The notes below the pieces were generated by a model that was not told the origin of the DNA, searched no databases, and worked only from the letters and a program-made list of their open reading frames with translations. This document shows positions 51,317-62,452 of a DNA stretch of 64,000 bases, piece by piece (positions within the stretch are counted from its first letter, which is position 1; every line of letters starts with the position of its first letter). The stretch is from Dysgonomonas sp. Marseille-P4361. Its GTDB lineage: Bacteria; Bacteroidota; Bacteroidia; Bacteroidales; Dysgonomonadaceae. The stretch spans positions 1 to 64,000 of the forward strand of contig NZ_OPYL01000008.1 of NCBI RefSeq assembly GCF_900343125.1. The letters are read 5' to 3'. The position numbers and the translations under genes were made by a program.

Positions 51317-52462
51317 CTAAAACTCAGGTAAAAGATTATTCGCTATATTCTTTATTGCAATACATTCTATTTCAATCAGCCAGCCCGGTCTACAAACAGG
51401 GGCTAAGACAATAACCTTAGGGATATCTATATAGTTTTTGTCAAAGAAGCGATTAACCAACGAATAGTCGGCTATATCGCGTATATATATAATCATTTGA
51501 GCGATATCAGTCATACCACATTCGGCTTCAGACAATAGCACATTGATATTTTCCAATGTGCGATCGAGCTGCTTCATCACATTGTGCGGATGTACAATCT
51601 CCCCCTTATTATTTATACTAGCTGTACCCGATATATACACATGCCGTCTGTCAGCAAAATCGATAGAAGTCCCTCTTTCGAAAGTAACTCCATAGTCATG
51701 TGTTCTGTTGAGATGCGTTAAGCCATGCAAGAATTTTATCTGCCCCGGCTTCACTCCTTCAATCGCGTATGCATCCATCAACACCAAAGAATGAGGGTGA
51801 ATATGTCGACCCTCGATACCTGTACTTGCAATATAGTGTGTTTCTTTATTCAGCCCTTCTTGTTCAAAATAAGCTACACGAGCTTTTACCATTTCCTGAT
51901 AGTGAATATCAACACCTTGTACATAAATCCATGTCCTTATACAATTATCCTTGAGGGTAGATTGATGTTGCTTAAGGATTTCATTATACGAGTTGAAAAT
52001 ATATTCAGTTTCAGCATATTCATTTTTAAGCGGAGCATGTAATTGCGCTGTATATAAATGTTTGCTGCCACCGTTACGCTGCACTACTAATGTATTCCCT
52101 TCTTTTAGAATAGAGTTATTCCCTTTAATATAATAGAGCCACAATGCCACCTTTGTTCCGTTAAGCGGAGGTTGCTGTACAATAGAAGAGACGGCATTCG
52201 GATATTCTTCGAAATACAAAGATTGATTTATAGCATCACTTACAAAGTAACGTTTCCAAATCAGATCTGTCCCTTCAAAGACTTTGTTATCAGCTATACG
52301 CTGTATCGCTGTATGTATATTTAAGAATTGAGTTTCTACATCTAAGGTTGAATCTGTAATTTGTAGAATAGAATGAAATTCGGATGCATTACCGCCTACA
52401 TCGAAAGACGTTGCTTTCAACTGTATCGCTAAATCATCCCAATATATATTCGTATATTTCAT
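51317..52462 (-). CDS. Rid (YjgF/YER057c/UK114)-family protein with chorismatase-like N-terminal extension
   Basis: The C-terminal part (about 260-375) is a Rid-fold domain with RHVYISGTASINNKGEIVH, VMKQLDRTLENINVLLSEA and a final CRPGWLIEIECIAI strand, as in enamine/imine deaminases. The N-terminal half resembles the FkbO/Hyg5-type chorismatase-like arrangement of the same fold but shows no firm catalytic match. The 381-residue chain has no signal peptide and is probably cytoplasmic. Its start overlaps the stop of the upstream CxxCH lipoprotein gene by four bases, so translation is coupled. Why a soluble Rid enzyme would be linked to an exported heme-type protein is unclear. Confidence 0.8.
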   Translation of the reverse strand: MKYTNIYWDDLAIQLKATSFDVGGNASEFHSILQITDSTLDVETQFLNIHTAIQRIADNKVFEGTDLIWKRYFVSDAINQSLYFEEYPNAVSSIVQQPPLNGTKVALWLYYIKGNNSILKEGNTLVVQRNGGSKHLYTAQLHAPLKNEYAETEYIFNSYNEILKQHQSTLKDNCIRTWIYVQGVDIHYQEMVKARVAYFEQEGLNKETHYIASTGIEGRHIHPHSLVLMDAYAIEGVKPGQIKFLHGLTHLNRTHDYGVTFERGTSIDFADRRHVYISGTASINNKGEIVHPHNVMKQLDRTLENINVLLSEAECGMTDIAQMIIYIRDIADYSLVNRFFDKNYIDIPKVIVLAPVCRPGWLIEIECIAIKNIANNLLPEF

Positions 52463-53931
52463 TGTTTCTTAAATGTTACATTGCTTCCCTTTTCTGTTTT
52501 AGCAACATGAGCAATATCATGCCCGGTAATTTTCACTTTACCTTTTACAAATTCAGGAACATTATATGATTTCATTAAAGAGCTATAAAACTCAACATTT
52601 TTTTGAGGTACAACGAAAGCTTTTTCTGCTTCACCCTTATCATTAATATAAGCGATAAAAGGACGGGTGTACAATCCATCTATACGTCGGCTACTGTACA
52701 CAATCCAACTACTGTTACTACTCCACGAATGATAACTTTCGGCATCATTACTATTTGCTAGTGTAAGAGGGTAATGCTCCTTCGTTTCCAGATTGCAGAT
52801 ATAAAGATCGGCTTCCTTATGCCACACAAAGAAACCGCCATAATCGCCCCTAGTATACAGAAGATACTTCCCGTTAGGAGACACTCTGGGGAATGATGCA
52901 CTTTTGTCCTCTATCTTAGCATTAAAGATCGTATCAACAGCTGTTCCAAACTGCCTGGTTTCAGGATCGAAACTAATACTACAAAGGCTATATTTTACAT
53001 CTCTGAATTCTTCTGGCATTTGGCGAGCCTCTGCGGTAGAGAAATAAAGAGTTTTACCATCGGGAGAAAAGGTAGAGAAAGACTCAAATCTTTGATCCGA
53101 AAACAAGGCCGCTGTTGTAATTATCTCTTGTTTTTCTATATCATATACTACTACGTCGGAGGCTAAATCATATACTTCGACCCGATTTTTATCTATTGAA
53201 TGATAATTTTGCTTTGTTTCGTTTACCGAGAATGCGATAAATTTTCCGGAAGGATGCCATGATGGATACACAAGGGCTGACATTGTATCATCGGTTCTGG
53301 TATTTATTTTTTGCACTTTCCCATCAATCATTAACATTGTAGCGGCATTAGCTCCACGTATATGCATCATCATCTGATCTGGATCTTGCATTCTGAAGGA
53401 ATGACAGTTCATACAATCACTCCCTACCGTTTTATTTTCCAAAATAGCTGTTTGGGTAAAATTCTCCAAATTTCGTTGGTAAATTCCCATTTCATTCCAT
53501 GCTTCGTATCCTGGCTCGATAAGACGATATGCTAAATACGGATCAACAGGTTCTTTAGCTACTTTTATTCTAAAAGGAGAATATGCAGTCCACCCAGCCT
53601 CTTCTTGTGTACATAATGTTACTAAGAATTCATTATCAATAGAAGCTTTTAGCAACTCTTGCCATTTCGATTCAGGTATTTGGATCTGTCCATTCTTAGC
53701 ATGTACTTCAAATCGGACATCGCTACCTTCAAAAATAGCAGCTAAATCCTTATCAGTATCCTCAACTAATTTGAAGTTCAAAGGTGCAATATTGGAAGGA
53801 ACAGTTACTCCAATATAGTCTGGGTATATTGGAAGAAGTGTATCACTCGTTTTATTTATTTCTACAGTTTTGGTACATGCCGATACTATAAGAGAGAAAA
53901 CGATACAAGCTATATATATGACTTTATTCAT
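52459..53931 (-). CDS. Lipoprotein with cytochrome-c-type CxxCH and TolB/PD40-like propeller
   Basis: A lipoprotein signal ends at VSAC and is followed by basic TKTVEINK, which suggests periplasmic anchoring. A fibronectin-like domain (about 30-145) precedes a heme-attachment motif SDCMNCHSF (Cys173, Cys176, His177) in the segment GSDCMNCHSFRMQDP. A WD40-like PD40 propeller follows (about 195-450), with FSPDGKTLYFS, VSPNGKYLLYT and WSSNSSWIVYSS. The isolated CxxCH in a propeller protein would make it a c-type cytochrome or redox sensor if heme is attached. It is encoded between the DUF6057-like and Rid-like genes. Confidence 0.85.
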   Translation of the reverse strand: MNKVIYIACIVFSLIVSACTKTVEINKTSDTLLPIYPDYIGVTVPSNIAPLNFKLVEDTDKDLAAIFEGSDVRFEVHAKNGQIQIPESKWQELLKASIDNEFLVTLCTQEEAGWTAYSPFRIKVAKEPVDPYLAYRLIEPGYEAWNEMGIYQRNLENFTQTAILENKTVGSDCMNCHSFRMQDPDQMMMHIRGANAATMLMIDGKVQKINTRTDDTMSALVYPSWHPSGKFIAFSVNETKQNYHSIDKNRVEVYDLASDVVVYDIEKQEIITTAALFSDQRFESFSTFSPDGKTLYFSTAEARQMPEEFRDVKYSLCSISFDPETRQFGTAVDTIFNAKIEDKSASFPRVSPNGKYLLYTRGDYGGFFVWHKEADLYICNLETKEHYPLTLANSNDAESYHSWSSNSSWIVYSSRRIDGLYTRPFIAYINDKGEAEKAFVVPQKNVEFYSSLMKSYNVPEFVKGKVKITGHDIAHVAKTEKGSNVTFKKQ

Positions 53932-53940
53932 ATGACTAAA

Positions 53941-55701
53941 TTAGTTACTAAAAATAAAATACGACCAATATGTATTTCCAAAATTTTGGTATAGCATATT
54001 TCCCAAGTTAGGATTGTTCCTATTTTTCAAAAACATTTGTTTGTATTCTTTATATTTCTGAATGATCATAGGATTTATCTTATACTTTTCCCATTCAGTT
54101 GGAGATTTTTCGGTGATAACAATAATAGCTTCCTGAAATTTTTCAGGCATATTCAACAGAGCTTCCTCGGTGTTGTAATATTTATCTATCAGCTCAATAA
54201 AAGAAGCCGTTTGTTTCCCAAACAAGAATAACGAAGCTAAATATTCAACAGCCGTTCTATTAGTAGGATCAGTCTCAGCAAGCAGCTGCAACTTAGAGAC
54301 TACATTTGTTGTTAACAACAAATAGTTTTCGTTTGGTAAGCCCCGTCTTTTCTTCCCTAATAAAGGATCTTCTTCTACAGCCTGATCGTTATATAGGAAT
54401 CGGCGTTGATCTGTTGCCCACTCTTTATAGTAGTGGGTTTGTTCTAGTAGTTTGATATATTTTTCAGCAACAGGGTATGCTCCACTAATCAGATTTGTTT
54501 GAACCAATCGTTTATATAGCCTCGGACTACCTGTTTTAGATATAGATATATTACATTCGAAGGTATAGTGCTGAGAAGCTGCAATATCTCCCAATGCAAA
54601 GTTCATTTCGTTGGATATTATCAGAGTAGACATATTTCTATCCGTTTTTGGGACTAAGCCATTAATACCTTTTTGGTCGAATTGAAAAAACTGCTTACCG
54701 AGTTGATTCGTTTCCATCAGAGCAAGATTAAGGTAATAGGCATACAACAGGTTAGTTATAGGCTTTTTGCTTTCTTCAATAATATCGTTCCATCTCTCCA
54801 TTCGTGCATAATAGTCTAATTTTTTATACTGAATAGATGAAAACTGTCCATATATTGGCAACAAATAATATGTAATAACTGTAGCAATTATTACTTGACC
54901 AATTAAAACAAAAAGTCCATTTTTATCTGATATTTTCTGATTTCTTAGTCCGTATGCTAGTAGGATCAAAAGCACTAATCCACCCCAAGCAAAGTAAGTA
55001 ATAGATGGTATCGTAATCCCAATTCCGAAATATAGTGATGGGGTAAATATTTGCTCATATCCTCCTATCCATGCAAAATGAACGCTGACATAGGCTAAAA
55101 TCAAAAGTAGACATAATGGGATAAGTGATAATAATATTTTTTTCTTATCCGTTAGTAATTCCCACAAAAGAACAGCTATAGAAAACAGAAAAGCGACTGA
55201 ACCTCCCCACCAGAACAACAAAGCAGTAAATACAGTAGCAACACCTATTCTCACAATAGGTTTATCTATGTATAAATATACTAGAAAAGCAGCTAACATT
55301 AATATAAAAGCGATTGTTCCTGCTATATAATAGCTATGATCGAGGTGCAAGAACAGAAAGAAAACAGCCGTTAAAAGAGGTAATAGTATAAGGGATATAT
55401 TGGAGTTGATCTTTTTTGAAATTCTATCCATAATTATGGCAACACTCAACACTAAAAAAGTTGTTATCAATGCCCCTACTTTAGGATGAAGATAAAATTG
55501 GAGAAACCATCTGCCAATAATCTCAGACAGACCGCCAAATGAAAAAAGCAGATCTGATAAAAATGTTTTATTGTATAAAAAAAGTTGCAGTTGTTCTGCG
55601 TAATACAAGTGAAATTCAAAAAAATATTGAATCAGTAGAAATAGAGTAATCCCGATAACAAGCCAAATCGTACTTGATAGGAGTTTTTTTATATTCTTCA
55701 T
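53941..55701 (-). CDS. DUF6057-like multi-pass membrane protein with C-terminal repeat domain
   Basis: This 586-residue inner-membrane protein starts with a hydrophobic segment (LLSSTIWLVIGITLFLLIQ) and has about eight to ten further helices to residue 300. A soluble, helical C-terminal half (about 300-586) follows with TPR-like pairs, for example NAIDDERW-type and NLALMETNQLG segments. The pattern matches the DUF6057 family of Bacteroidota. It precedes the CxxCH lipoprotein gene by nine bp and starts the three-gene operon. It could be a transporter or an assembly platform for the lipoprotein. No catalytic signature is seen, so no function is claimed. Confidence 0.75.
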   Translation of the reverse strand: MKNIKKLLSSTIWLVIGITLFLLIQYFFEFHLYYAEQLQLFLYNKTFLSDLLFSFGGLSEIIGRWFLQFYLHPKVGALITTFLVLSVAIIMDRISKKINSNISLILLPLLTAVFFLFLHLDHSYYIAGTIAFILMLAAFLVYLYIDKPIVRIGVATVFTALLFWWGGSVAFLFSIAVLLWELLTDKKKILLSLIPLCLLLILAYVSVHFAWIGGYEQIFTPSLYFGIGITIPSITYFAWGGLVLLILLAYGLRNQKISDKNGLFVLIGQVIIATVITYYLLPIYGQFSSIQYKKLDYYARMERWNDIIEESKKPITNLLYAYYLNLALMETNQLGKQFFQFDQKGINGLVPKTDRNMSTLIISNEMNFALGDIAASQHYTFECNISISKTGSPRLYKRLVQTNLISGAYPVAEKYIKLLEQTHYYKEWATDQRRFLYNDQAVEEDPLLGKKRRGLPNENYLLLTTNVVSKLQLLAETDPTNRTAVEYLASLFLFGKQTASFIELIDKYYNTEEALLNMPEKFQEAIIVITEKSPTEWEKYKINPMIIQKYKEYKQMFLKNRNNPNLGNMLYQNFGNTYWSYFIFSN

Positions 55702-55863: not shown

Positions 55864-57618
55864 CTATTTACTTCTCGACAACTTATACCTGATTGTATCC
55901 TTTATCAGTTGACTATCTTCTTTATTGAAAGCTATAAGTTCGCTTGCTATGTTTTTATTCTGAGGGAGTATATCTGCAATAATAGTATAAGCGATGTCTT
56001 TTGTCATCTCACGCAAACTTTCCGTTTGTTTATATTCTTTTTGTAGAATCCTCAAAAATCCTTCTCTGTTTTTAGGTGTAATATCTTCTTCAAAGATCCT
56101 CTTTATCTCTCTTCCTCTTTCTTTTTCCTTTTCAATATTAGAAAAATATTTTCCCAAACAGTTGTAGGGGTCTGCAAATTCTTTCCAACCTTTCAATACT
56201 AAAGATTGCGCATAGTTAGGATCATTCATCTTTTCTGAACTTACCTTAGCTGCTTTTATATATTGAAGATCAGAAGAGTGACGGTCAATTTCTTTCTGAT
56301 AAAAAACATCTGCTTCTTTTTTGTTGTTCATTAAGGAATAGAGATCTCCAATTCTCTCATACATATCTTTTGTCTTATACATCTCAATAGCCTTATCGTA
56401 CAATTTAGCTTTTTCGAAGCATTCACCGGCTCTTAGATTATCCTCGATAAGTTTTTGATACACATCTCCTGCTTCCTGATACAGATTTGCATTTTCAAAC
56501 ATTCTTGCCGCAGCATAATTATCTTTTAGTAATTTTATATAGATATAAGATGCTTGTATATATTTCTTATCTGACACAAGCTTATCTGCACTATCTCTAT
56601 ATTGTTTTCGCAAGAGAGAAAGAGCATCGTCTTCCATCGTATAATATCCGCTACCTCCCGATGTTCGGCTACTTTTCAGTAATTTGCTCAATGAAGATAA
56701 ATCATTCGCAAATTTACTCATCTGAAATGCACCTAAGTCACTTCCTCTTGCAGTACCTTCTCCATCTAAAGGTATAGCATAGTCTAAGGCCTTTTCGGGA
56801 TTATCTTTCAATAATTCGAGTAATTTATCCAGCTGACTTTTGTTTCTGTTAGTTAAATCCTTATAATCTTCCAGTAAACGATCGCCCCAATCTTTTTTGT
56901 CGCCATTTTTGTCTTTCTCTTTAAAGATGGACGAAATAATATTCGAATATCTTAACAATTTAGGTAAACCTTCTCCTTCCTTTATTATATTCTCAGGATC
57001 AGCATTGTTCATCAGTGTTTTATACAACGACAGTTTTAACTTTTCGGACGTACTCAATGGTTCATCTTTCAGTTTATCAACATCGGCTTTCTTTTCAAGG
57101 TCTTCTAAAATATGCTCAATGCTATCCTCTTGAACTACGGATATTCTAAAATGTGTTATTCTTTCCGGGATAAACGGTGCAGCTTTGGGTTTTATTTGTT
57201 CGATCGATTGTTCTTTACCGATAAAAATAGACTCTTCCCACTTTACCTCTTCCTCCAACTCTATTAAGCCCAATTCTGGATGCATAAAGTGAGGATGACG
57301 AGCAAAGAGTTCATCTGCTTCTTCTGTGAATATTTGAGGTTCAATACCTGTATACTGAGGTATGTATAGATGCTTTCCTATCTTCTGACACCATATATTA
57401 TTTCGTATATCTAGTTCCAACACTGATTTATGAAGAATAACCAAGCATCCAGATATGCTATTTAGCTGCATACCGGGTAATGGATAAACAGAGACTTTAT
57501 TTAAGTCTAACTGCATACATTGAATTTCGTGTAACCAATGACTGACTGACAAACCTTTGATATGGATTGCCTGCAACGGAAAACTATTTCTTTGTGTTGG
57601 ATATAATTTTAATTCCAT
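55864..57618 (-). CDS. TPR-like repeat protein of the MoxR-vWA-beta-propeller ternary system
   Basis: The 584-residue protein has no signal peptide. The first 150 residues are beta-rich (KLYPTQRNSFPLQAIHIKGLS, IWCQKIGKHLYIPQYTG) and may be a bpX-type domain. A helical, charged linker follows (about 170-330). Residues about 340-460 are TPR-like tandem helices, with SADKLVSDKKYIQASYIYIK, AARMFENANLYQEAGDVYQK and AGECFEKAKLYDKAIEMYK. The gene overlaps the vWA-propeller gene by ten bases and ends the five-gene operon. The repeats could scaffold partners or recognise an invasion or stress ligand. That role is inference. Confidence 0.72.
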   Translation of the reverse strand: MELKLYPTQRNSFPLQAIHIKGLSVSHWLHEIQCMQLDLNKVSVYPLPGMQLNSISGCLVILHKSVLELDIRNNIWCQKIGKHLYIPQYTGIEPQIFTEEADELFARHPHFMHPELGLIELEEEVKWEESIFIGKEQSIEQIKPKAAPFIPERITHFRISVVQEDSIEHILEDLEKKADVDKLKDEPLSTSEKLKLSLYKTLMNNADPENIIKEGEGLPKLLRYSNIISSIFKEKDKNGDKKDWGDRLLEDYKDLTNRNKSQLDKLLELLKDNPEKALDYAIPLDGEGTARGSDLGAFQMSKFANDLSSLSKLLKSSRTSGGSGYYTMEDDALSLLRKQYRDSADKLVSDKKYIQASYIYIKLLKDNYAAARMFENANLYQEAGDVYQKLIEDNLRAGECFEKAKLYDKAIEMYKTKDMYERIGDLYSLMNNKKEADVFYQKEIDRHSSDLQYIKAAKVSSEKMNDPNYAQSLVLKGWKEFADPYNCLGKYFSNIEKEKERGREIKRIFEEDITPKNREGFLRILQKEYKQTESLREMTKDIAYTIIADILPQNKNIASELIAFNKEDSQLIKDTIRYKLSRSK

Positions 57619-59921
57619 GTATTATCGTTAGTTAACAGATCTAACATTTCTCTGTCTATCAGATCCCCCATATCAGGAGATGGACTATCTGTATAAAAAT
57701 AAGGATTACCACTAGCTTCATTTCCTACAGACATAGCTAAGGACGAATCTACAGCAAGGGGAATTTCTATTTTTTCCCCATCTTTCAAAACAATGGATAT
57801 GAGGCCATAAAACGATTGAAAGACAGTGACTCCGTTCTTAAATTTGAATTCTTTATCATTATAGCGTATTGCTGTTTCCTTAATTTCATCATCCTCGGAA
57901 GAATAATGGACAAGCCTTAACATGGAACTAACTTCCTTCAGGACGTGTTTTCCATTAATAACTAAGCAATTATTCTTAGTAATAGCTATTTGCCTTACAT
58001 TCATTATAATAGAAGAATGAAAATTCATTGCTCCTTCCATATAATATTTTTGAATATTGTTTGCCGCATTTTCTTCTATCTCCTTACATAATGCAGCATC
58101 TTCAATATTTTCGATCTGTAAATCCAAAGTTATACGCCTTAAATATTTATTCTCTTTCGATTTCATTTTTCTATGGCTTCCTTCAATAGCATAAAAGACT
58201 CCTTGATGAAAATAGATAGTGCAAGGTTGGAAAAACATACCTTTCCGTAAGGAGACTGTAGATTCAGCCTTAGTTACAAGATTTATCAGGTTTATTTTTT
58301 TATGATTATCATAACAAAGTAACAATAGAGGCTCATGCATTTCATTATATCCAACCTGATATGCCGAAAGTCCTTTGCCTATTTTATTAAATATGATTTG
58401 CCAACCTTTGTTTTTAGATACTCTTCTGAATAAAAGCCCTCGGTCTATAAAATAACCTTGATCACCTAAAAGCATCAATGGCAAATCGAATCTTTTGACA
58501 AACAATAGACGGAATGGATGCGTATCAGAACTGTCAATATCAACAATTGTAGCAAGACTCTCTTTAGGTACTTTTTTCCAACTCTCGGTCAAGTTGAGAG
58601 CTAAAGATTGTATATGTTTACTACTGTTTTTGAGAATACGGAACACTTCAATTTCACCTCCATTATCAGCATGGATGACATAATCAATATGTTTTCTATA
58701 TTCGTTAAGCAGAGATTTCATTTCAGGATACTTCATTGTAGCAACATTAGATATTAAGACTATCTCGCTATTGCTTGTAGTATAGTTTCTGAAAAAATCA
58801 AGAAAGCCTTCACTTGGATATAAACAAGGGTCTACATGGTCTACAATATTTATAATATCTTTTGTAGAATTGAAATTAACCTCATAGCTACGATTCCCTA
58901 TCAAATAAACTTTATAGTTCATCTTCGATTTAGGATGATTCACTAACGCCAACATCAAGGCACAAGCTATTGTTTTAGGTGTTCCCCAGTTTCGTAGCGA
59001 TATATCGATGAGAATATACTGATTGAAATTATCGTTTTGAAGCGGAGCTTCTCTGTTGATATAAAGAGCCTCATTGTTTGCTAACCTAGATAAGAAGACC
59101 TCATCCTCGTTTGCAAATTCTGATATAAATAGTTTATCAAAGTCGCCCTTGTTGCTAATATCTGAGACTCCTCCCAGCTTTTGCTGACTTGTATCTGAAT
59201 AATGCATCGGGATATTCAACCCTCCCCACAACTGCCTTATAAGTGAACCTATATGAAATGTTTTTGGCTCGGCAATTAAGTCTGAAATCAAATCTCCTTC
59301 CTTCTCCGGATTCAATTCAATATCCACATCCTGCGGTATTGCTACAATCTTTTCTATGAGTGCCTCAGTAGACTCAAAACGTCCGTTTAATAGGGCAAGA
59401 GGTCTAAAGTCAATATTTAAAACAGCCGGATCGAAAGGTACTTTTATATATGACTGGGGATGAATCCTCTGCATCTTTATTTCACCTACAAAAACTCCAG
59501 AATCTTTTATTGATTTCTTATTGTGATAGTTTTGGAATATCGTTTGAAATAATAGTATCAGTTTCTTCCGTTCTTTATATTCTGCGGGTAATTCACTCAA
59601 TTTTCTTAGAAAATGAAATGCATGTTCAATCATTTCACTACTCAACAATGCCTGACGCCTATTTTCTTCGGGTATTGACTCTATTATCTTCCTTATCATC
59701 TTTAGTGACCCGTCTGCATGTTGGCTCGTTGCAATAATAGCCAACAGCAAAGAGCCAAAGGCGGGAAGCCCTTGCACCGAGAGTTCTTCTATAACTTCAG
59801 CAACAGATTCACAATAGGCAATAGTATTCCCATTCGGGATGGCTAACACTTTGTTGTTATCCTCCCATTGCCAGAAGTAATTGTCGTAAACCTGAAAATA
59901 TCTGTATTTCATACTGCTCAT
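57609..59921 (-). CDS. vWA plus beta-propeller protein of the MoxR ternary system
   Basis: This 770-residue cytoplasmic protein is the likely core of the system. After a helical N-terminus (1-200) a vWA-like domain begins near residue 300 with YILIDISLRNWGTPKT. The MIDAS pattern DxSxS is altered (DISLR), while later acidic residues (VDHVDPCLYPS, IVLISNVATM) hold the vWA strand order. The C-terminal 350 residues consist of short beta blocks (LFRRVSKNKGWQIIF, KGMFFQPCTIYFHQGVFYAI, VFQSFYGLISIVLKDG) consistent with a beta-propeller. It overlaps the small upstream gene by four bases and the TPR gene by ten. MoxR would remodel or load this vWA partner, by family precedent. Confidence 0.78.
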   Translation of the reverse strand: MSSMKYRYFQVYDNYFWQWEDNNKVLAIPNGNTIAYCESVAEVIEELSVQGLPAFGSLLLAIIATSQHADGSLKMIRKIIESIPEENRRQALLSSEMIEHAFHFLRKLSELPAEYKERKKLILLFQTIFQNYHNKKSIKDSGVFVGEIKMQRIHPQSYIKVPFDPAVLNIDFRPLALLNGRFESTEALIEKIVAIPQDVDIELNPEKEGDLISDLIAEPKTFHIGSLIRQLWGGLNIPMHYSDTSQQKLGGVSDISNKGDFDKLFISEFANEDEVFLSRLANNEALYINREAPLQNDNFNQYILIDISLRNWGTPKTIACALMLALVNHPKSKMNYKVYLIGNRSYEVNFNSTKDIINIVDHVDPCLYPSEGFLDFFRNYTTSNSEIVLISNVATMKYPEMKSLLNEYRKHIDYVIHADNGGEIEVFRILKNSSKHIQSLALNLTESWKKVPKESLATIVDIDSSDTHPFRLLFVKRFDLPLMLLGDQGYFIDRGLLFRRVSKNKGWQIIFNKIGKGLSAYQVGYNEMHEPLLLLCYDNHKKINLINLVTKAESTVSLRKGMFFQPCTIYFHQGVFYAIEGSHRKMKSKENKYLRRITLDLQIENIEDAALCKEIEENAANNIQKYYMEGAMNFHSSIIMNVRQIAITKNNCLVINGKHVLKEVSSMLRLVHYSSEDDEIKETAIRYNDKEFKFKNGVTVFQSFYGLISIVLKDGEKIEIPLAVDSSLAMSVGNEASGNPYFYTDSPSPDMGDLIDREMLDLLTNDNTWN

Positions 59922-60658
59922 ATATTCTCCAATGCATTATAGGTCTTTCTGAAAGAAGCTATTGATAAATATTCCAATTGAGTAACGTCTATTTTTATGT
60001 AATCATCTTGGTTCAACCAGCAAATATATAAGTCAGTAGATGTATAAAGTTTATTGATACAATCGGATAGTATAGAGTAGTTAAAGTCGAAGCCTGCAGG
60101 TAACAACAACTGCTTATATCTCCAGAACACATTCCCCTTGATAGGTAGTAAAGGTGTACCTGCTATAAAAACGTTTCTGTCTGAAAGAATAGTCCACCTT
60201 AATTCTCTCAAGCGGCTTGCAGGAGCAGTCTCTATATATTTTCCCAACTCTGTCACATCTGTTATCATTGCAAATACATCCTGCATATTAGAGGAAGGCA
60301 CCAATCGTATATTTATGCTATCTTCCTCCAAACCCATAAAATTATCATTGTATCTGGGTAGGGTGACAGGTACTGCTCTAAAAATAGGAGTCCATAGCAA
60401 AGACGGAATATTGCCACAAGGCAAGAGACTGTCTTTAGGGTACAACTTGTTATTTTTCTCTACATAGATGCTGCAACTAGGAATGCTTCGAAGTTTGTGT
60501 TCTGAGGTTTGTTCCTCCGTCAAATCTTTTAGCCATATTGTTTCCCCATCATAGGCCAACTTGAGATTTGTCCATAAACGAAGGCTACCTAATTTATTTT
60601 TGTATATGACATCTATTGCAGCATAATATACTAGAGTGTTTTGAGTATGTTCTGCCAT
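59918..60658 (-). CDS. Small beta-rich bpX-type component of the MoxR ternary system
   Basis: This 246-residue protein has no signal peptide, membrane helix or catalytic motif that I recognise. It alternates beta segments (NTLVYYAAIDVIYKN, SLRLWTNLKLAYDGETIWL) with a helical region (EDVF-type MQDVFAMITDVTELGKYIE) and a PLLPIKGNVFWRYKQLLLPAGF segment near residue 165. Its gene overlaps the MoxR gene by 28 bases and the vWA gene by four, so the three should be translated in fixed ratio. The position between MoxR and vWA is that of a bpX-type adaptor in such systems. The exact bpX class cannot be assigned here. Confidence 0.68.
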   Translation of the reverse strand: MAEHTQNTLVYYAAIDVIYKNKLGSLRLWTNLKLAYDGETIWLKDLTEEQTSEHKLRSIPSCSIYVEKNNKLYPKDSLLPCGNIPSLLWTPIFRAVPVTLPRYNDNFMGLEEDSINIRLVPSSNMQDVFAMITDVTELGKYIETAPASRLRELRWTILSDRNVFIAGTPLLPIKGNVFWRYKQLLLPAGFDFNYSILSDCINKLYTSTDLYICWLNQDDYIKIDVTQLEYLSIASFRKTYNALENI

Positions 60659-61764
60659 AGTGCTTCAATCTCACTTTCTATATGTTGCTTGTGTTCTACG
60701 TCTTTTATCCAATTACCCCTTGTCTGAATGTATCTCAATTTATCCTTTAAGATAGTTTGTTCCGAGAAAGATAAAGTTCCTGAACGCCATTGCTCTTTGA
60801 GCAGGTTAATATCTTTTATCAATTCATCTGCATTGGGAGCTCTGTTTTTCAATGCCTGATGATGCTGAGCAATACTATCGTCCTTTTCTATAACATTGTC
60901 TATTATACCTGCTAATAATTCTATCTGCTCCTCTGTGTCCCAAATATGTTTCATCACCCATAGATCTGACAGAATAGCTTCTGTTCGACCACAAATGGTA
61001 GCACTTGCAGCAATTAAGTTCTGAACTTTTACTGCACGCCTATCTGACACTTTAACTCCGGCATTACGCAAGGCTCTGATTGCCTGAAGATAATCTTTAC
61101 GGATATTATCAAGATTTACTTGCCTGCTTTGAGCTTGTAATTCCTTTATTTCTTCGGGCTTAATCAGTGGAGGTTGCTCTGTACTTTTATTATCAAGCTT
61201 CCATCCTGCAATTAAGACTCCTTCCAGTAAATCGGGTGCAACATAATCGCATTGTATACGAATGAGGAAACGATCGAGAAGAGCATTTAGCGACTCATCT
61301 TCGGGCAAAAGATTACTAGCACCCACAAACATCAATGCCGGCAATTGACGGGTCTCTTTTCCTCTACGAAACACTCTTTCGTTCAGATTCATTAGCAAGC
61401 TGTTGAGGATTGCACTATTTGCGTTAAATATCTCGTCAAGAAAAACCATCGATGCTTCGGGCATCATACTTTCAGTATTTGTGACCAACTCTCCCTCTTT
61501 CAGTTTACGAATATCGAAAGGTCCATATATTTCATTTGGCTCTGTAAATCGGGTTAATAAATACTCAAAGTTTCTACCATCTTCAATACAAGTTGATAGT
61601 AAACGGATAATTGCACTTTTTGCTGTTCCCGGAGGACCTAACAAAAAAGTATTCTCTCTGGCAATAAGACCAATAGCCAATAAATCCACAATTTCATCTT
61701 TGCCTATAAATGTGTTCTTTATGAAAGAAAGTACTTCGTTTAATTTTTGCAGTTTTGTTTCCAT
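60631..61764 (-). CDS. MoxR-family AAA+ ATPase
   Basis: This AAA+ ATPase of the MoxR/RavA-like branch is the motor of the ternary system. Walker A is LLGPPGTAKSA (Lys49 and Ser50), Walker B MVFLDEIF (Asp110, Glu111), and a sensor-1-like stretch is VGASNLLPEDESL. FTEPNEIYGPFD shows the typical MoxR insert. The C-terminal lid region and a charged helical tail (about 290-377) follow. Length is 377. The start lies seven bp after the small upstream gene. MoxR proteins usually act as chaperones that activate vWA partners, and the vWA partner here is encoded two genes on. Confidence 0.93.
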   Translation of the reverse strand: METKLQKLNEVLSFIKNTFIGKDEIVDLLAIGLIARENTFLLGPPGTAKSAIIRLLSTCIEDGRNFEYLLTRFTEPNEIYGPFDIRKLKEGELVTNTESMMPEASMVFLDEIFNANSAILNSLLMNLNERVFRRGKETRQLPALMFVGASNLLPEDESLNALLDRFLIRIQCDYVAPDLLEGVLIAGWKLDNKSTEQPPLIKPEEIKELQAQSRQVNLDNIRKDYLQAIRALRNAGVKVSDRRAVKVQNLIAASATICGRTEAILSDLWVMKHIWDTEEQIELLAGIIDNVIEKDDSIAQHHQALKNRAPNADELIKDINLLKEQWRSGTLSFSEQTILKDKLRYIQTRGNWIKDVEHKQHIESEIEALWQNILKTL

Positions 61765-61771
61765 TTATATT

Positions 61772-62395
61772 TTATTCAAATTTTCCCCATAAGTTTTTCT
61801 TATATATACTCAATTCTGATTCTATGTCTTTGTAAAGCGAGGGATGATGCGACAACAGTAAGGCATCGCGTTTAATAACTCTATCAATATATAATTGATT
61901 CAGACATTTATCTTCCTTTATTACTAAAAAATCGAGGCTATCTATATTCTCCAAACCATAGCCAATAGCCGAATAATGCCAAACGTGCAATATGTCTTCC
62001 AATATCTGAATTAATGGATCAGTATCATCTATCAATTTTAGCTCAAACAAAAGATCTGAAATAAACCTTAATGTAAGATCGGCTGATAAAATAGCAGCCG
62101 GAGTTATCGCCTCATTATAGGGTTGTACCAACCTACGAACTTCATCCAAATTCTGCTCTCTGTAAAGAAGCAGCTGGCTCGAATAATAGAACAGACAAGC
62201 CGCCCATATTGCCGCTTGAGAGCTAAATATAGGTGATGTGTAGGGGTATGATAATACTTCTTGTTTATAGTCTTTTTCCAGATACGAAATTGTTGCTTCT
62301 ATCTCATCAGGATTAATTTCCAGTATATTTTTGTAAAGTATAACTTCCCCGGTTAATCTGACATGACGAATCATGTCGAAAAAATAACTTTTCAT
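61772..62395 (-). CDS. First gene of the MoxR ternary operon, unknown helical protein
   Basis: This small soluble protein is largely helical, with YLEKDYKQEVLS, IWAACLFYYSSQLLLYREQ and LIQILEDILHVWHYSA. I know of no family name. I chose the ATG at 62395 (MKSYFFDMIRHVRLTG) because the residues before it, from an upstream in-frame ATG at 62452, are poorly conserved-looking and hydrophobic. The longer form of 226 residues is possible. It precedes MoxR by seven bp and appears to head the operon. It may be the equivalent of the extra bpX-type subunit in related systems, a guess from position only. Confidence 0.65.
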   Translation of the reverse strand: MKSYFFDMIRHVRLTGEVILYKNILEINPDEIEATISYLEKDYKQEVLSYPYTSPIFSSQAAIWAACLFYYSSQLLLYREQNLDEVRRLVQPYNEAITPAAILSADLTLRFISDLLFELKLIDDTDPLIQILEDILHVWHYSAIGYGLENIDSLDFLVIKEDKCLNQLYIDRVIKRDALLLSHHPSLYKDIESELSIYKKNLWGKFE

Positions 62396-62452
62396 TTCGA
62401 GGTGCAAGATAATAAAAAATATATGTATTGTATTGTCAATACCATACTTCAT

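What the first reader, a model, noticed from the sequence alone, without database searches (positions are those of the whole stretch)
55864..62452. Five-gene MoxR-vWA-beta-propeller ternary system
Seen: a MoxR AAA+ ATPase, a beta-rich small protein overlapping it by 28 bases, a vWA plus propeller-like protein, and a TPR-like repeat protein follow each other with overlaps of 28, 4 and 10 bases, headed by a small unknown gene. Known: computational work on bacterial conflict systems has grouped MoxR, vWA, beta-propeller and bpX-type proteins as a ternary system with almost no experimental data. Inferred: MoxR powers a conformational switch in the vWA/propeller protein, with the TPR protein as scaffold or recognition element. 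This is the most likely place for an undescribed biological activity in the window.
Basis: partly seen in the sequence, partly recalled or inferred. Interest (0 to 1): 0.75.

Follow-up and report, generated by a model that had tools for sequence, protein, structure and literature searches.

The report
Known MoxR-vWA-propeller operon, soluble variant
This is a five-gene bacterial protein-remodelling machine of an already named but functionally untested kind; the copy here has no recognisable membrane anchor, and many relatives in two other genera sit beside spare transfer-RNA genes and RNA-repair genes, which gives a first testable hint of its job.

Summary
Five tightly packed minus-strand genes (62452 to 55864) match the Pfam families bpX4, bpMoxR, bpX2, bpX0 (plus sub-threshold bpX1) and bpX3. 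This is the beta-propeller MoxR-vWA ternary system of Kaur et al. 2020 (PMC7159879, section 22). Gene order is the same in the 78 complete loci of 80 named relatives.

Corrections and additions. The vWA domain has no Pfam hit. It keeps D-x-S/T but lacks the aligned beta-4 aspartate in 79 of 79 proteins. A low-confidence model still aligns best, within ties, to integrin vWA-plus-propeller chains. The TPR protein here has no membrane helix by hydropathy; 72 of 78 relatives have one to six. The operon is unique to this genome among 101 of its family but near-core in one other genus (136 of 148). That fits horizontal gain here, and maintenance at least as well as defence.

New lead: in Chryseobacterium and Flavobacterium the operon often borders an accessory tRNA array with RNA ligases and exonucleases (50 of 80 loci with at least three tRNAs). 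The island persists where the operon is absent, and the window lacks it, so the link is suggestive only.

The parts
61772..62452 (-). bpX4 protein, first gene; likely true start 62395 (207 aa)
   Evidence: PF19920 7.6e-61, residues 23-225; first gene in the 78 complete relatives
60631..61764 (-). bpMoxR AAA+ ATPase
   Evidence: PF20030 1.5e-99, AAA_lid_8 5.1e-11; closest solved structure by sequence E. coli RavA 1.2e-42
61615..61638 (-). P-loop GPPGTAKS (the GXXXTAKS variant described for these systems)
   Evidence: residue 43 of the protein; same eight residues in 80 of 80 MoxR proteins compared (window plus 79 relatives; the cut L038 frame left out), Walker B also found in 80 of 80; variant described in PMC7159879 section 22
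59918..60658 (-). bpX2 protein, start overlaps MoxR by 28 bases
   Evidence: PF19918 9e-72; same 28-base overlap in 52 of 80 relatives; model mean pLDDT 90.4, pTM 0.55
57609..59921 (-). vWA / beta-propeller protein
   Evidence: bpX0 and sub-threshold bpX1 in Pfam; model
59349..59831 (-). bpX0 helical domain, residues 31-191
   Evidence: PF19915 8.7e-28; helices in model
58599..59039 (-). divergent vWA domain, residues 295-441, D306-x-S308
   Evidence: strand/helix order in model; structural rows to integrin chains (which carry a vWA or alpha-I domain, recalled) begin at residue 295; no Asp at 391 or 392 in 79 of 79
58041..58505 (-). propeller-like blades, residues 473-627
57684..57854 (-). bpX1-like stretch, residues 690-746
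   Evidence: PF19917 2.6e-05, below cut-off
55864..57618 (-). bpX3 + TPR protein, no membrane segment by hydropathy
   Evidence: PF19919 1e-41; highest 19-residue hydropathy 1.22
57097..57615 (-). bpX3 domain, residues 2-174
56293..56514 (-). TPR-like repeats, residues 369-442
   Evidence: several sub-threshold TPR families; the C-terminal half that holds them also matches in eight unnamed relatives and in the 78 complete named loci

Best explanation
It is a beta-propeller-type MoxR-vWA (bpX) system. Shown: the five families, their fixed order and translational packing, an intact AAA+ P-loop and Walker B, an incomplete MIDAS, and the lack of a membrane helix by hydropathy. Inferred: bpMoxR forms an ATP-driven ring like RavA and NorQ. 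The bpX0-vWA-propeller protein is its adaptor, docks on the ring and holds the client mainly through its propeller and flanking domains, because its metal site is incomplete. bpX2 and bpX4 are dedicated subunits, and bpX3-TPR is a scaffold. ATP turnover then pulls on or remodels the client. In most relatives the scaffold carries one to six membrane helices between bpX3 and TPR and would hold the machine at the inner membrane; in the window's branch it is soluble and would work in the cytoplasm. The client is unknown. The window copy was most likely gained horizontally.
For: Families. Order in 78 of 78 complete loci and one strand in 80 of 80. P-loop and Walker B in 80 of 80 proteins compared. 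RavA as nearest solved structure by sequence. vWA then propeller in one chain. No Asp at the aligned beta-4 end in 79 of 79; PMC7159879 says a subset of these vWA domains lack one or both aspartates, and in NorD (PMC9976466, passages) MIDAS mutants lose target activity but still bind NorQ. Membrane helices in 72 of 78 relatives and in none of the other four proteins. The no-helix forms group with the window (UFBoot 97, 31 taxa). Horizontal gain: present only in this genome among 101 of its family and 295 of its order; none in the roughly 13 kb upstream of cydD in 10 congeners.
Against: No biochemistry was found. The model of the vWA protein is poor (mean pLDDT 57.9, pTM 0.34), and its integrin rows are tied in Z with propeller-only rows. 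Profile searches did not link the vWA region to any PDB sequence or to the genome's own Bat-type vWA proteins. Asp occurs at the neighbouring aligned columns 393 (3 of 79) and 394 (16 of 79), so a shifted alignment could hide a metal ligand in a minority. No complex was modelled. PMC7159879 describes a propeller in the third component; I did not find one in the bpX3-TPR protein by Pfam, and its structure was not predicted.
Confidence: 0.65

Rival explanations
1. Conflict (anti-phage or abortive) system, as in Kaur et al. 2020 and the first reader: the bpX proteins sense an invader, the MoxR-vWA pair sets a threshold, and the bpX3-TPR protein acts as effector at the membrane.
For: Authors' classification. 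Sporadic spread: 10 of 395 genomes of the phylum, 10 of 150 Flavobacterium, one genome in the own family. bpX3 with its linker is the least conserved of the six gene products (mean identity 0.60 against 0.92 for MoxR, 46 loci). Membrane helices in most relatives.
Against: No PADLOC match for the five proteins. No known effector domain. Single-copy and near-core in one genus (136 of 148). Of 20 flanking gene families tested in Pfam, several are RNA- or translation-related; of 10 flanking proteins tested in PADLOC, only an exonuclease (DEDDh) and one weak PtuA-like protein matched.
Confidence: 0.3
2. RNA and translation maintenance: the machine remodels RNA-protein complexes (damaged tRNA, stalled ribosome or repair enzymes) and works with accessory tRNAs and RNA ligases.
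For: Accessory tRNA array beside the operon: 42 of 80 loci with at least three tRNAs downstream, first one at median 911 bases, 503 of 508 on the operon's strand; 8 more loci with at least three upstream only. RNA ligase in 20 of 80, any of six RNA- or translation-related families in 47 of 80. Single cREC gene within 14 kb of bpX2 in 18 of 18 hand-picked genomes that have it, of 20 searched (two of the 18 copies carry internal stops). In Flavobacterium the RLIG1-like ligase is in 8 of 10 bpX2 carriers and 1 of 140 others (plus one fragment), always within 12.5 kb. The operon lies at opposite ends of the island in the two genera. In Anabaena a tRNA array, RtcB, a slipin and an AAA ATPase rise together when one repressor is deleted (PMC10272220, passages).
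Against: The island stays without the operon in three Chryseobacterium genomes (L134, L135, L137), in reduced form in a fourth (L136), and in one Flavobacterium (L147). Counts are not phylogenetically independent. 21 of 80 loci have no tRNA nearby (four of these have almost no flank), among them Kordia, Rufibacter and Kapaibacterium. In Flavobacterium cREC is not near bpX2. The window has no tRNA, and its genome has no PF09414 ligase and no cREC.
Confidence: 0.25
3. Membrane or respiratory-complex chaperone like RavA-ViaA: it matures or tunes an envelope enzyme.
For: RavA is the nearest solved MoxR by sequence. RavA and ViaA act at the inner membrane (PMC9489729, abstract). Membrane helices in most relatives. 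The window operon is divergent from two ABC-transporter genes that look like cydDC (label recalled, not tested).
Against: No membrane helix in the window's branch. The stretch upstream of the cydD-like gene is variable in 10 congeners, so adjacency says little.
Confidence: 0.15
4. Horizontally acquired passenger without function in this genome.
For: Absent from the other 100 genomes of the family searched.
Against: All five frames are intact with native overlaps; orthologues keep the same order over large distances.
Confidence: 0.05

Closest known systems
MoxR-vWA-beta-propeller ternary system (Kaur et al. 2020, eLife 9:e52696, subsystem 4; Pfam bpX0-bpX4, bpMoxR)
   Same: All five proteins match families named for it; GXXXTAKS P-loop; divergent vWA followed by propeller-like blades; linked extra genes
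   Different: No membrane segment in the TPR component; no L12/ClpS insert seen by eye in the vWA protein; no propeller found by Pfam in the TPR component
RavA-ViaA (E. coli)
   Same: MoxR ATPase with a vWA partner; RavA is the nearest solved structure by sequence
   Different: Five genes instead of two; propeller, bpX0 and bpX2-4 domains; the NCBIfam RavA match scores 178.6 bits against a cut-off of 681, so it is not RavA
NorQ-NorD
   Same: MoxR plus vWA adaptor that remodels a client
   Different: NorD has a MIDAS whose T and D are needed for target activity; here the aligned beta-4 Asp is missing in 79 of 79
Anabaena TrcR regulon (tRNA array, RtcB, slipin, AAA ATPase; PMC10272220, passages)
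   Same: Same guild as the island beside this operon in many Flavobacterium and Chryseobacterium: tRNA array, RNA ligase, slipin, AAA+ ATPase
   Different: A regulon, not one locus; its AAA protein was not compared here; the window lacks the island

Membership tests
MoxR-vWA-beta-propeller ternary system | MoxR ATPase of the bpMoxR type with GXXXTAKS P-loop | tested here: met
   PF20030 1.5e-99; GPPGTAKS in the window and 79 relatives
MoxR-vWA-beta-propeller ternary system | vWA domain with a beta-propeller C-terminal to it in one protein | tested here: inconclusive
MoxR-vWA-beta-propeller ternary system | Linked bpX-family genes in conserved order | tested here: met
   bpX4, bpX2, bpX0, bpX3; order in 78 of 78 complete loci
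MoxR-vWA-beta-propeller ternary system | (typical, not defining) membrane segment in the third component | tested here: not met
   None by hydropathy in the window; also none in 6 of 78 relatives with the same ordered operon
MoxR-vWA-beta-propeller ternary system | (typical, not defining) propeller in the third component | tested here: inconclusive
   No Pfam propeller in protein 5; its structure was not predicted
MoxR-vWA chaperones that use a MIDAS | DxSxS-T-D metal site | tested here: not met
   D306 in 79 of 79, S or T at 308 in 79 of 79, K/R/I at 310, no D at 391 or 392 in 79 of 79; D at 393 in 3 and at 394 in 16
RavA-ViaA | Equivalog score for RavA | tested here: not met
   178.6 bits against cut-off 681
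Known anti-phage defence system | Match to a PADLOC model | tested here: not met
   0 families for 5 of 5 proteins
Anti-phage defence | Protection against phage | not testable with these tools
   needs an experiment
RNA-repair system | RNA-joining or RNA-processing enzyme in the system itself | tested here: not met
   No such Pfam domain in the five proteins; such enzymes are only neighbours in some relatives

The most novel reading that the evidence does not exclude
The bpX MoxR-vWA machine is an ATP-driven remodeller of damaged tRNA or stalled translation complexes. In Flavobacterium and Chryseobacterium it belongs to one guild with an accessory tRNA array and with RNA ligases, exonucleases, a cyclic-phosphate receiver (cREC) and a slipin, so these 'conflict' systems would be translation-damage repair machines. 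The window's soluble form would be the cytoplasmic branch of the same machine.
Probability: 0.25. Interest if true: 0.75.

Novelty: new member of a known kind. Interest (0 to 1): 0.45.

Why it matters
The beta-propeller ternary systems were called enigmatic by the authors who described them, because they show no conventional effector. This work gives a clean catalogue: a fixed five-part core, three membrane states of the scaffold (none; one or two helices in one protein; split and with several helices) and an incomplete vWA metal site. It also gives a concrete, testable neighbourhood hint, a tRNA array plus RNA-repair genes, in two genera where the operon lies on opposite sides of the same kind of island. 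If the hint is right, a predicted immune system would be an RNA or translation maintenance machine.

Tried and rejected
Empty-site test at the window locus: the DUF6057 neighbour is found in only 4 of 25 genus genomes counting the own one, and the DNA upstream of the cydD-like gene holds different genes in the 10 congeners compared, two of which (L128, L131) resemble each other, so no clean empty site was found there. Operon extension into the DUF6057 / PD40 genes: they follow after a 162-base gap, and phmmer with these two and the next protein found no homologue in the 80 relatives' loci, so I leave them out.

vWA homology by sequence: profile A3 (24 of the 79 proteins) gave no PDB sequence, and hhalign against three proteins of the genome's own Bat-type operon (BatA, BatB and DUF58 labels recalled, not tested) failed. 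The single-sequence templates make this a weak test.

Phage origin: only the MoxR matched PHROGs. A second MoxR-vWA set beside the Flavobacterium operons was looked for in L132 and L133 and not found.

Rows dropped: L063 and L073 (short vWA frames); L038 (cut MoxR)'s motif count; one search used 30 of 80 loci plus the window; one search used 38 of 45; A3 used 24 of 79; A4 used 51 of 81. One search kept the best 80 of 161 loci, mostly Chryseobacterium. L038 and L063 lack the bpX3/TPR gene and so count as 'none''s own tally of 8; I report 6 of 78. The 20 Chryseobacterium, 15 bpX2-less Flavobacterium and the other handles were picked by hand.
Full report
Observation. Five minus-strand ORFs run from 62452 to 55864 with overlaps of 28, 4 and 10 bases and a 7-base gap between the first two. 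Pfam names every one: bpX4, bpMoxR (plus AAA lid), bpX2, bpX0 with a sub-threshold bpX1, and bpX3 with sub-threshold TPR repeats. There is no NCBIfam match over its cut-off (RavA scores 178.6 against 681) and no PADLOC match. The set is the beta-propeller MoxR-vWA ternary system of Kaur et al. 2020; I read its section 22 in full and passages elsewhere.

Gene order. A scan of named genomes with a bpX2 alignment found 161 loci and kept the best 80. In 78 the order bpX4, MoxR, bpX2, vWA, bpX3/TPR is complete; the other two are cut by contig ends. All 80 lie on one strand. In 15 of 79 loci an extra gene sits between bpX4 and MoxR, and in L073 the vWA frame is short with a 641-base gap before bpX3. 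The 28-base MoxR/bpX2 overlap recurs exactly in 52 of 80. In 52 loci bpX3 and TPR are separate genes, in 24 they are fused, and in 2 the pattern is mixed.

Spread. bpX2 is in 10 of 395 genomes of the phylum. In the order (1 of 295) and the family (1 of 101) only the window's own genome has it. The tree of MoxR, bpX2 and vWA (31 taxa) puts the window with Chryseosolibacter and a Kapaibacterium MAG (UFBoot 87), far from Chryseobacterium (midpoint rooting). Horizontal gain is the simplest reading; the fetched stretch upstream of the cydD-like gene is variable in 10 congeners and holds no bpX genes.

Scaffold. By hydropathy, none of the other four proteins has a membrane helix in any of the 80 loci, while the bpX3/TPR component has one to six in 72 of 78. 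They lie between bpX3 and TPR, or at the gene split. The six soluble relatives (L024, L026, L029, L043, L044, L051) and the window form one group with UFBoot 97. So membrane anchoring is a property of part of the family, not of all.

bpX2. The model is confident (mean pLDDT 90.4, pTM 0.55) but has no significant match among solved structures.

Conservation. Among 46 split-type loci (Chryseobacterium and close kin) the mean pairwise identity is MoxR 0.92, TPR 0.75, bpX2 0.73, bpX4 0.71, vWA 0.69, bpX3 0.60; a neighbouring gene that looks like a purine nucleoside phosphorylase (label by eye, 37 loci) has 0.90. The adaptor and scaffold parts evolve faster than the motor. This fits variable clients or a conflict role and does not decide between them.

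Neighbourhood lead. Clustering of flanking ORFs and Pfam on 20 cluster examples showed RNA- and translation-related genes: RLIG1-like and Rnl2-type RNA ligases, RNase_T exonuclease, RNase H-like (PF04308, YkuK type), cREC, R2K ATP-grasp, endonuclease V-like, phosphoesterase and slipin; other examples were unnamed or housekeeping. ARAGORN then showed tRNA arrays. In 42 of 80 loci at least three tRNAs lie downstream, the first at a median of 911 bases (741-1618), 503 of 508 on the operon's strand; the commonest isotypes are Glu, Leu, Arg, Pro, Cys and His, and there is no Ala, Gly or Val in these downstream sets. Eight more loci have at least three upstream only; nine have one or two; 21 have none. 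There are 621 tRNAs in 977,135 flank bases, against 91 tRNA matches in one whole 5.3-Mb genome, G714 (only 150 of its 418 candidates were scored, so that figure is a lower bound).

Tests of the lead. In 20 hand-picked Chryseobacterium genomes with bpX2 (19 in one contig, one in two), cREC is found in 18, always single and within 14 kb of bpX2; two of these copies carry internal stops. A strong Rnl2-type ligase match (75 bits or more) near bpX2, within 15 kb, is found in 13, and G772 has a fragment there; 12 of these 13 genomes also have other PF09414 matches far away, mostly weak, but of 80 bits or more in G714 and G762. In 12 genomes of that genus without bpX2, cREC is in 5 and a strong ligase in 1. 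In 150 Flavobacterium genomes the RLIG1-like ligase is full-length in 9, and 8 of these are among the 10 bpX2 carriers, within 5.3-12.4 kb (Fisher p 7.6e-11, not corrected for descent; the two calls used the same draw as far as the handles show). Against the lead: in Flavobacterium a strong cREC match occurs in 5 of 10 carriers and is never near bpX2 (other contig, or 2.4 Mb away in G925). In the bpX2-less genomes L134, L135 and L137 the phosphorylase-like gene is followed directly by the array and its RNA genes, L136 keeps a reduced array, and L138 shows none. In L147 the Flavobacterium island stands without the operon. So the operon is an optional module beside an island that also exists without it. 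What speaks for more than accident is that it sits at the island's start in Chryseobacterium and at its end in Flavobacterium, on the same strand in both. A similar guild (tRNA array, RtcB, slipin, AAA ATPase) rises together in an Anabaena repressor mutant (PMC10272220, passages). The window and its genome lack the island as far as tested: no tRNA in the window, no PF09414, no cREC.

Literature. Searches (7 papers; 5; 9; 4; 1) listed all they found, and the listings and passages that I saw hold no experiment on this subsystem and no link to tRNA arrays. Searches listed only 12 of 476, 107 and 32 papers. The library holds only open-licence papers, and the 2016 RNA-repair review I recalled is not held, so the claim of novelty for the tRNA link is provisional.

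Verdict. A correctly spotted, already named system; a new member with a soluble scaffold. Its role is open. I give the machine reading 0.65, and for the role conflict 0.3, RNA/translation maintenance 0.25, RavA-like membrane chaperone 0.15, rest unknown.

Noticed in passing
L085:16723-19003, L076:16953-18780 and 40 further loci: Ordered accessory tRNA array (His, Lys, Arg, Asp, Pro, Glu, Asn, Cys, Tyr, Leu, Phe, Gln, Trp types), in most of these loci followed by an RNase H-like (PF04308) gene and often RNA-repair genes; a few calls have odd anticodons, such as agt or ata here and opal tca in the upstream mini-arrays.
   Followed up: partly
L049:7750-8253, L042:6416-6928: Endonuclease V-like gene directly upstream of bpX4 (overlapping by one base in L049, 2 bases apart in L042), so probably cotranscribed with the operon.
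   Followed up: no
L032:15064-20695, L030:11695-15039: WGR/HEAT, SWIM zinc-finger and reverse-transcriptase-like genes convergent with the bpX operon in several Flavobacterium.
   Followed up: partly
window 52459-55701: DUF6057 membrane protein followed by a PD40-propeller protein with a CxxCH haem-type motif, same strand as the operon, after a 162-base gap; DUF6057 homologue found in only 4 of 25 genus genomes including its own.
   Followed up: partly
L026 (record titled Williamsia MAG): bpX operon that groups with Bacteroidota copies in a record titled as an actinobacterium; probably a mislabelled or mixed bin.
   Followed up: no
L041:4510-5295 family (20 loci), L149:10514-11035 family: Two unnamed small protein families (261 aa and about 175 aa) that recur in the tRNA/RNA-repair island; the first has no Pfam match, and a member of the second family (L025:6747-7304) has none either.
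   Followed up: no
[quoted passage not shown] absent in the window.
   Followed up: no
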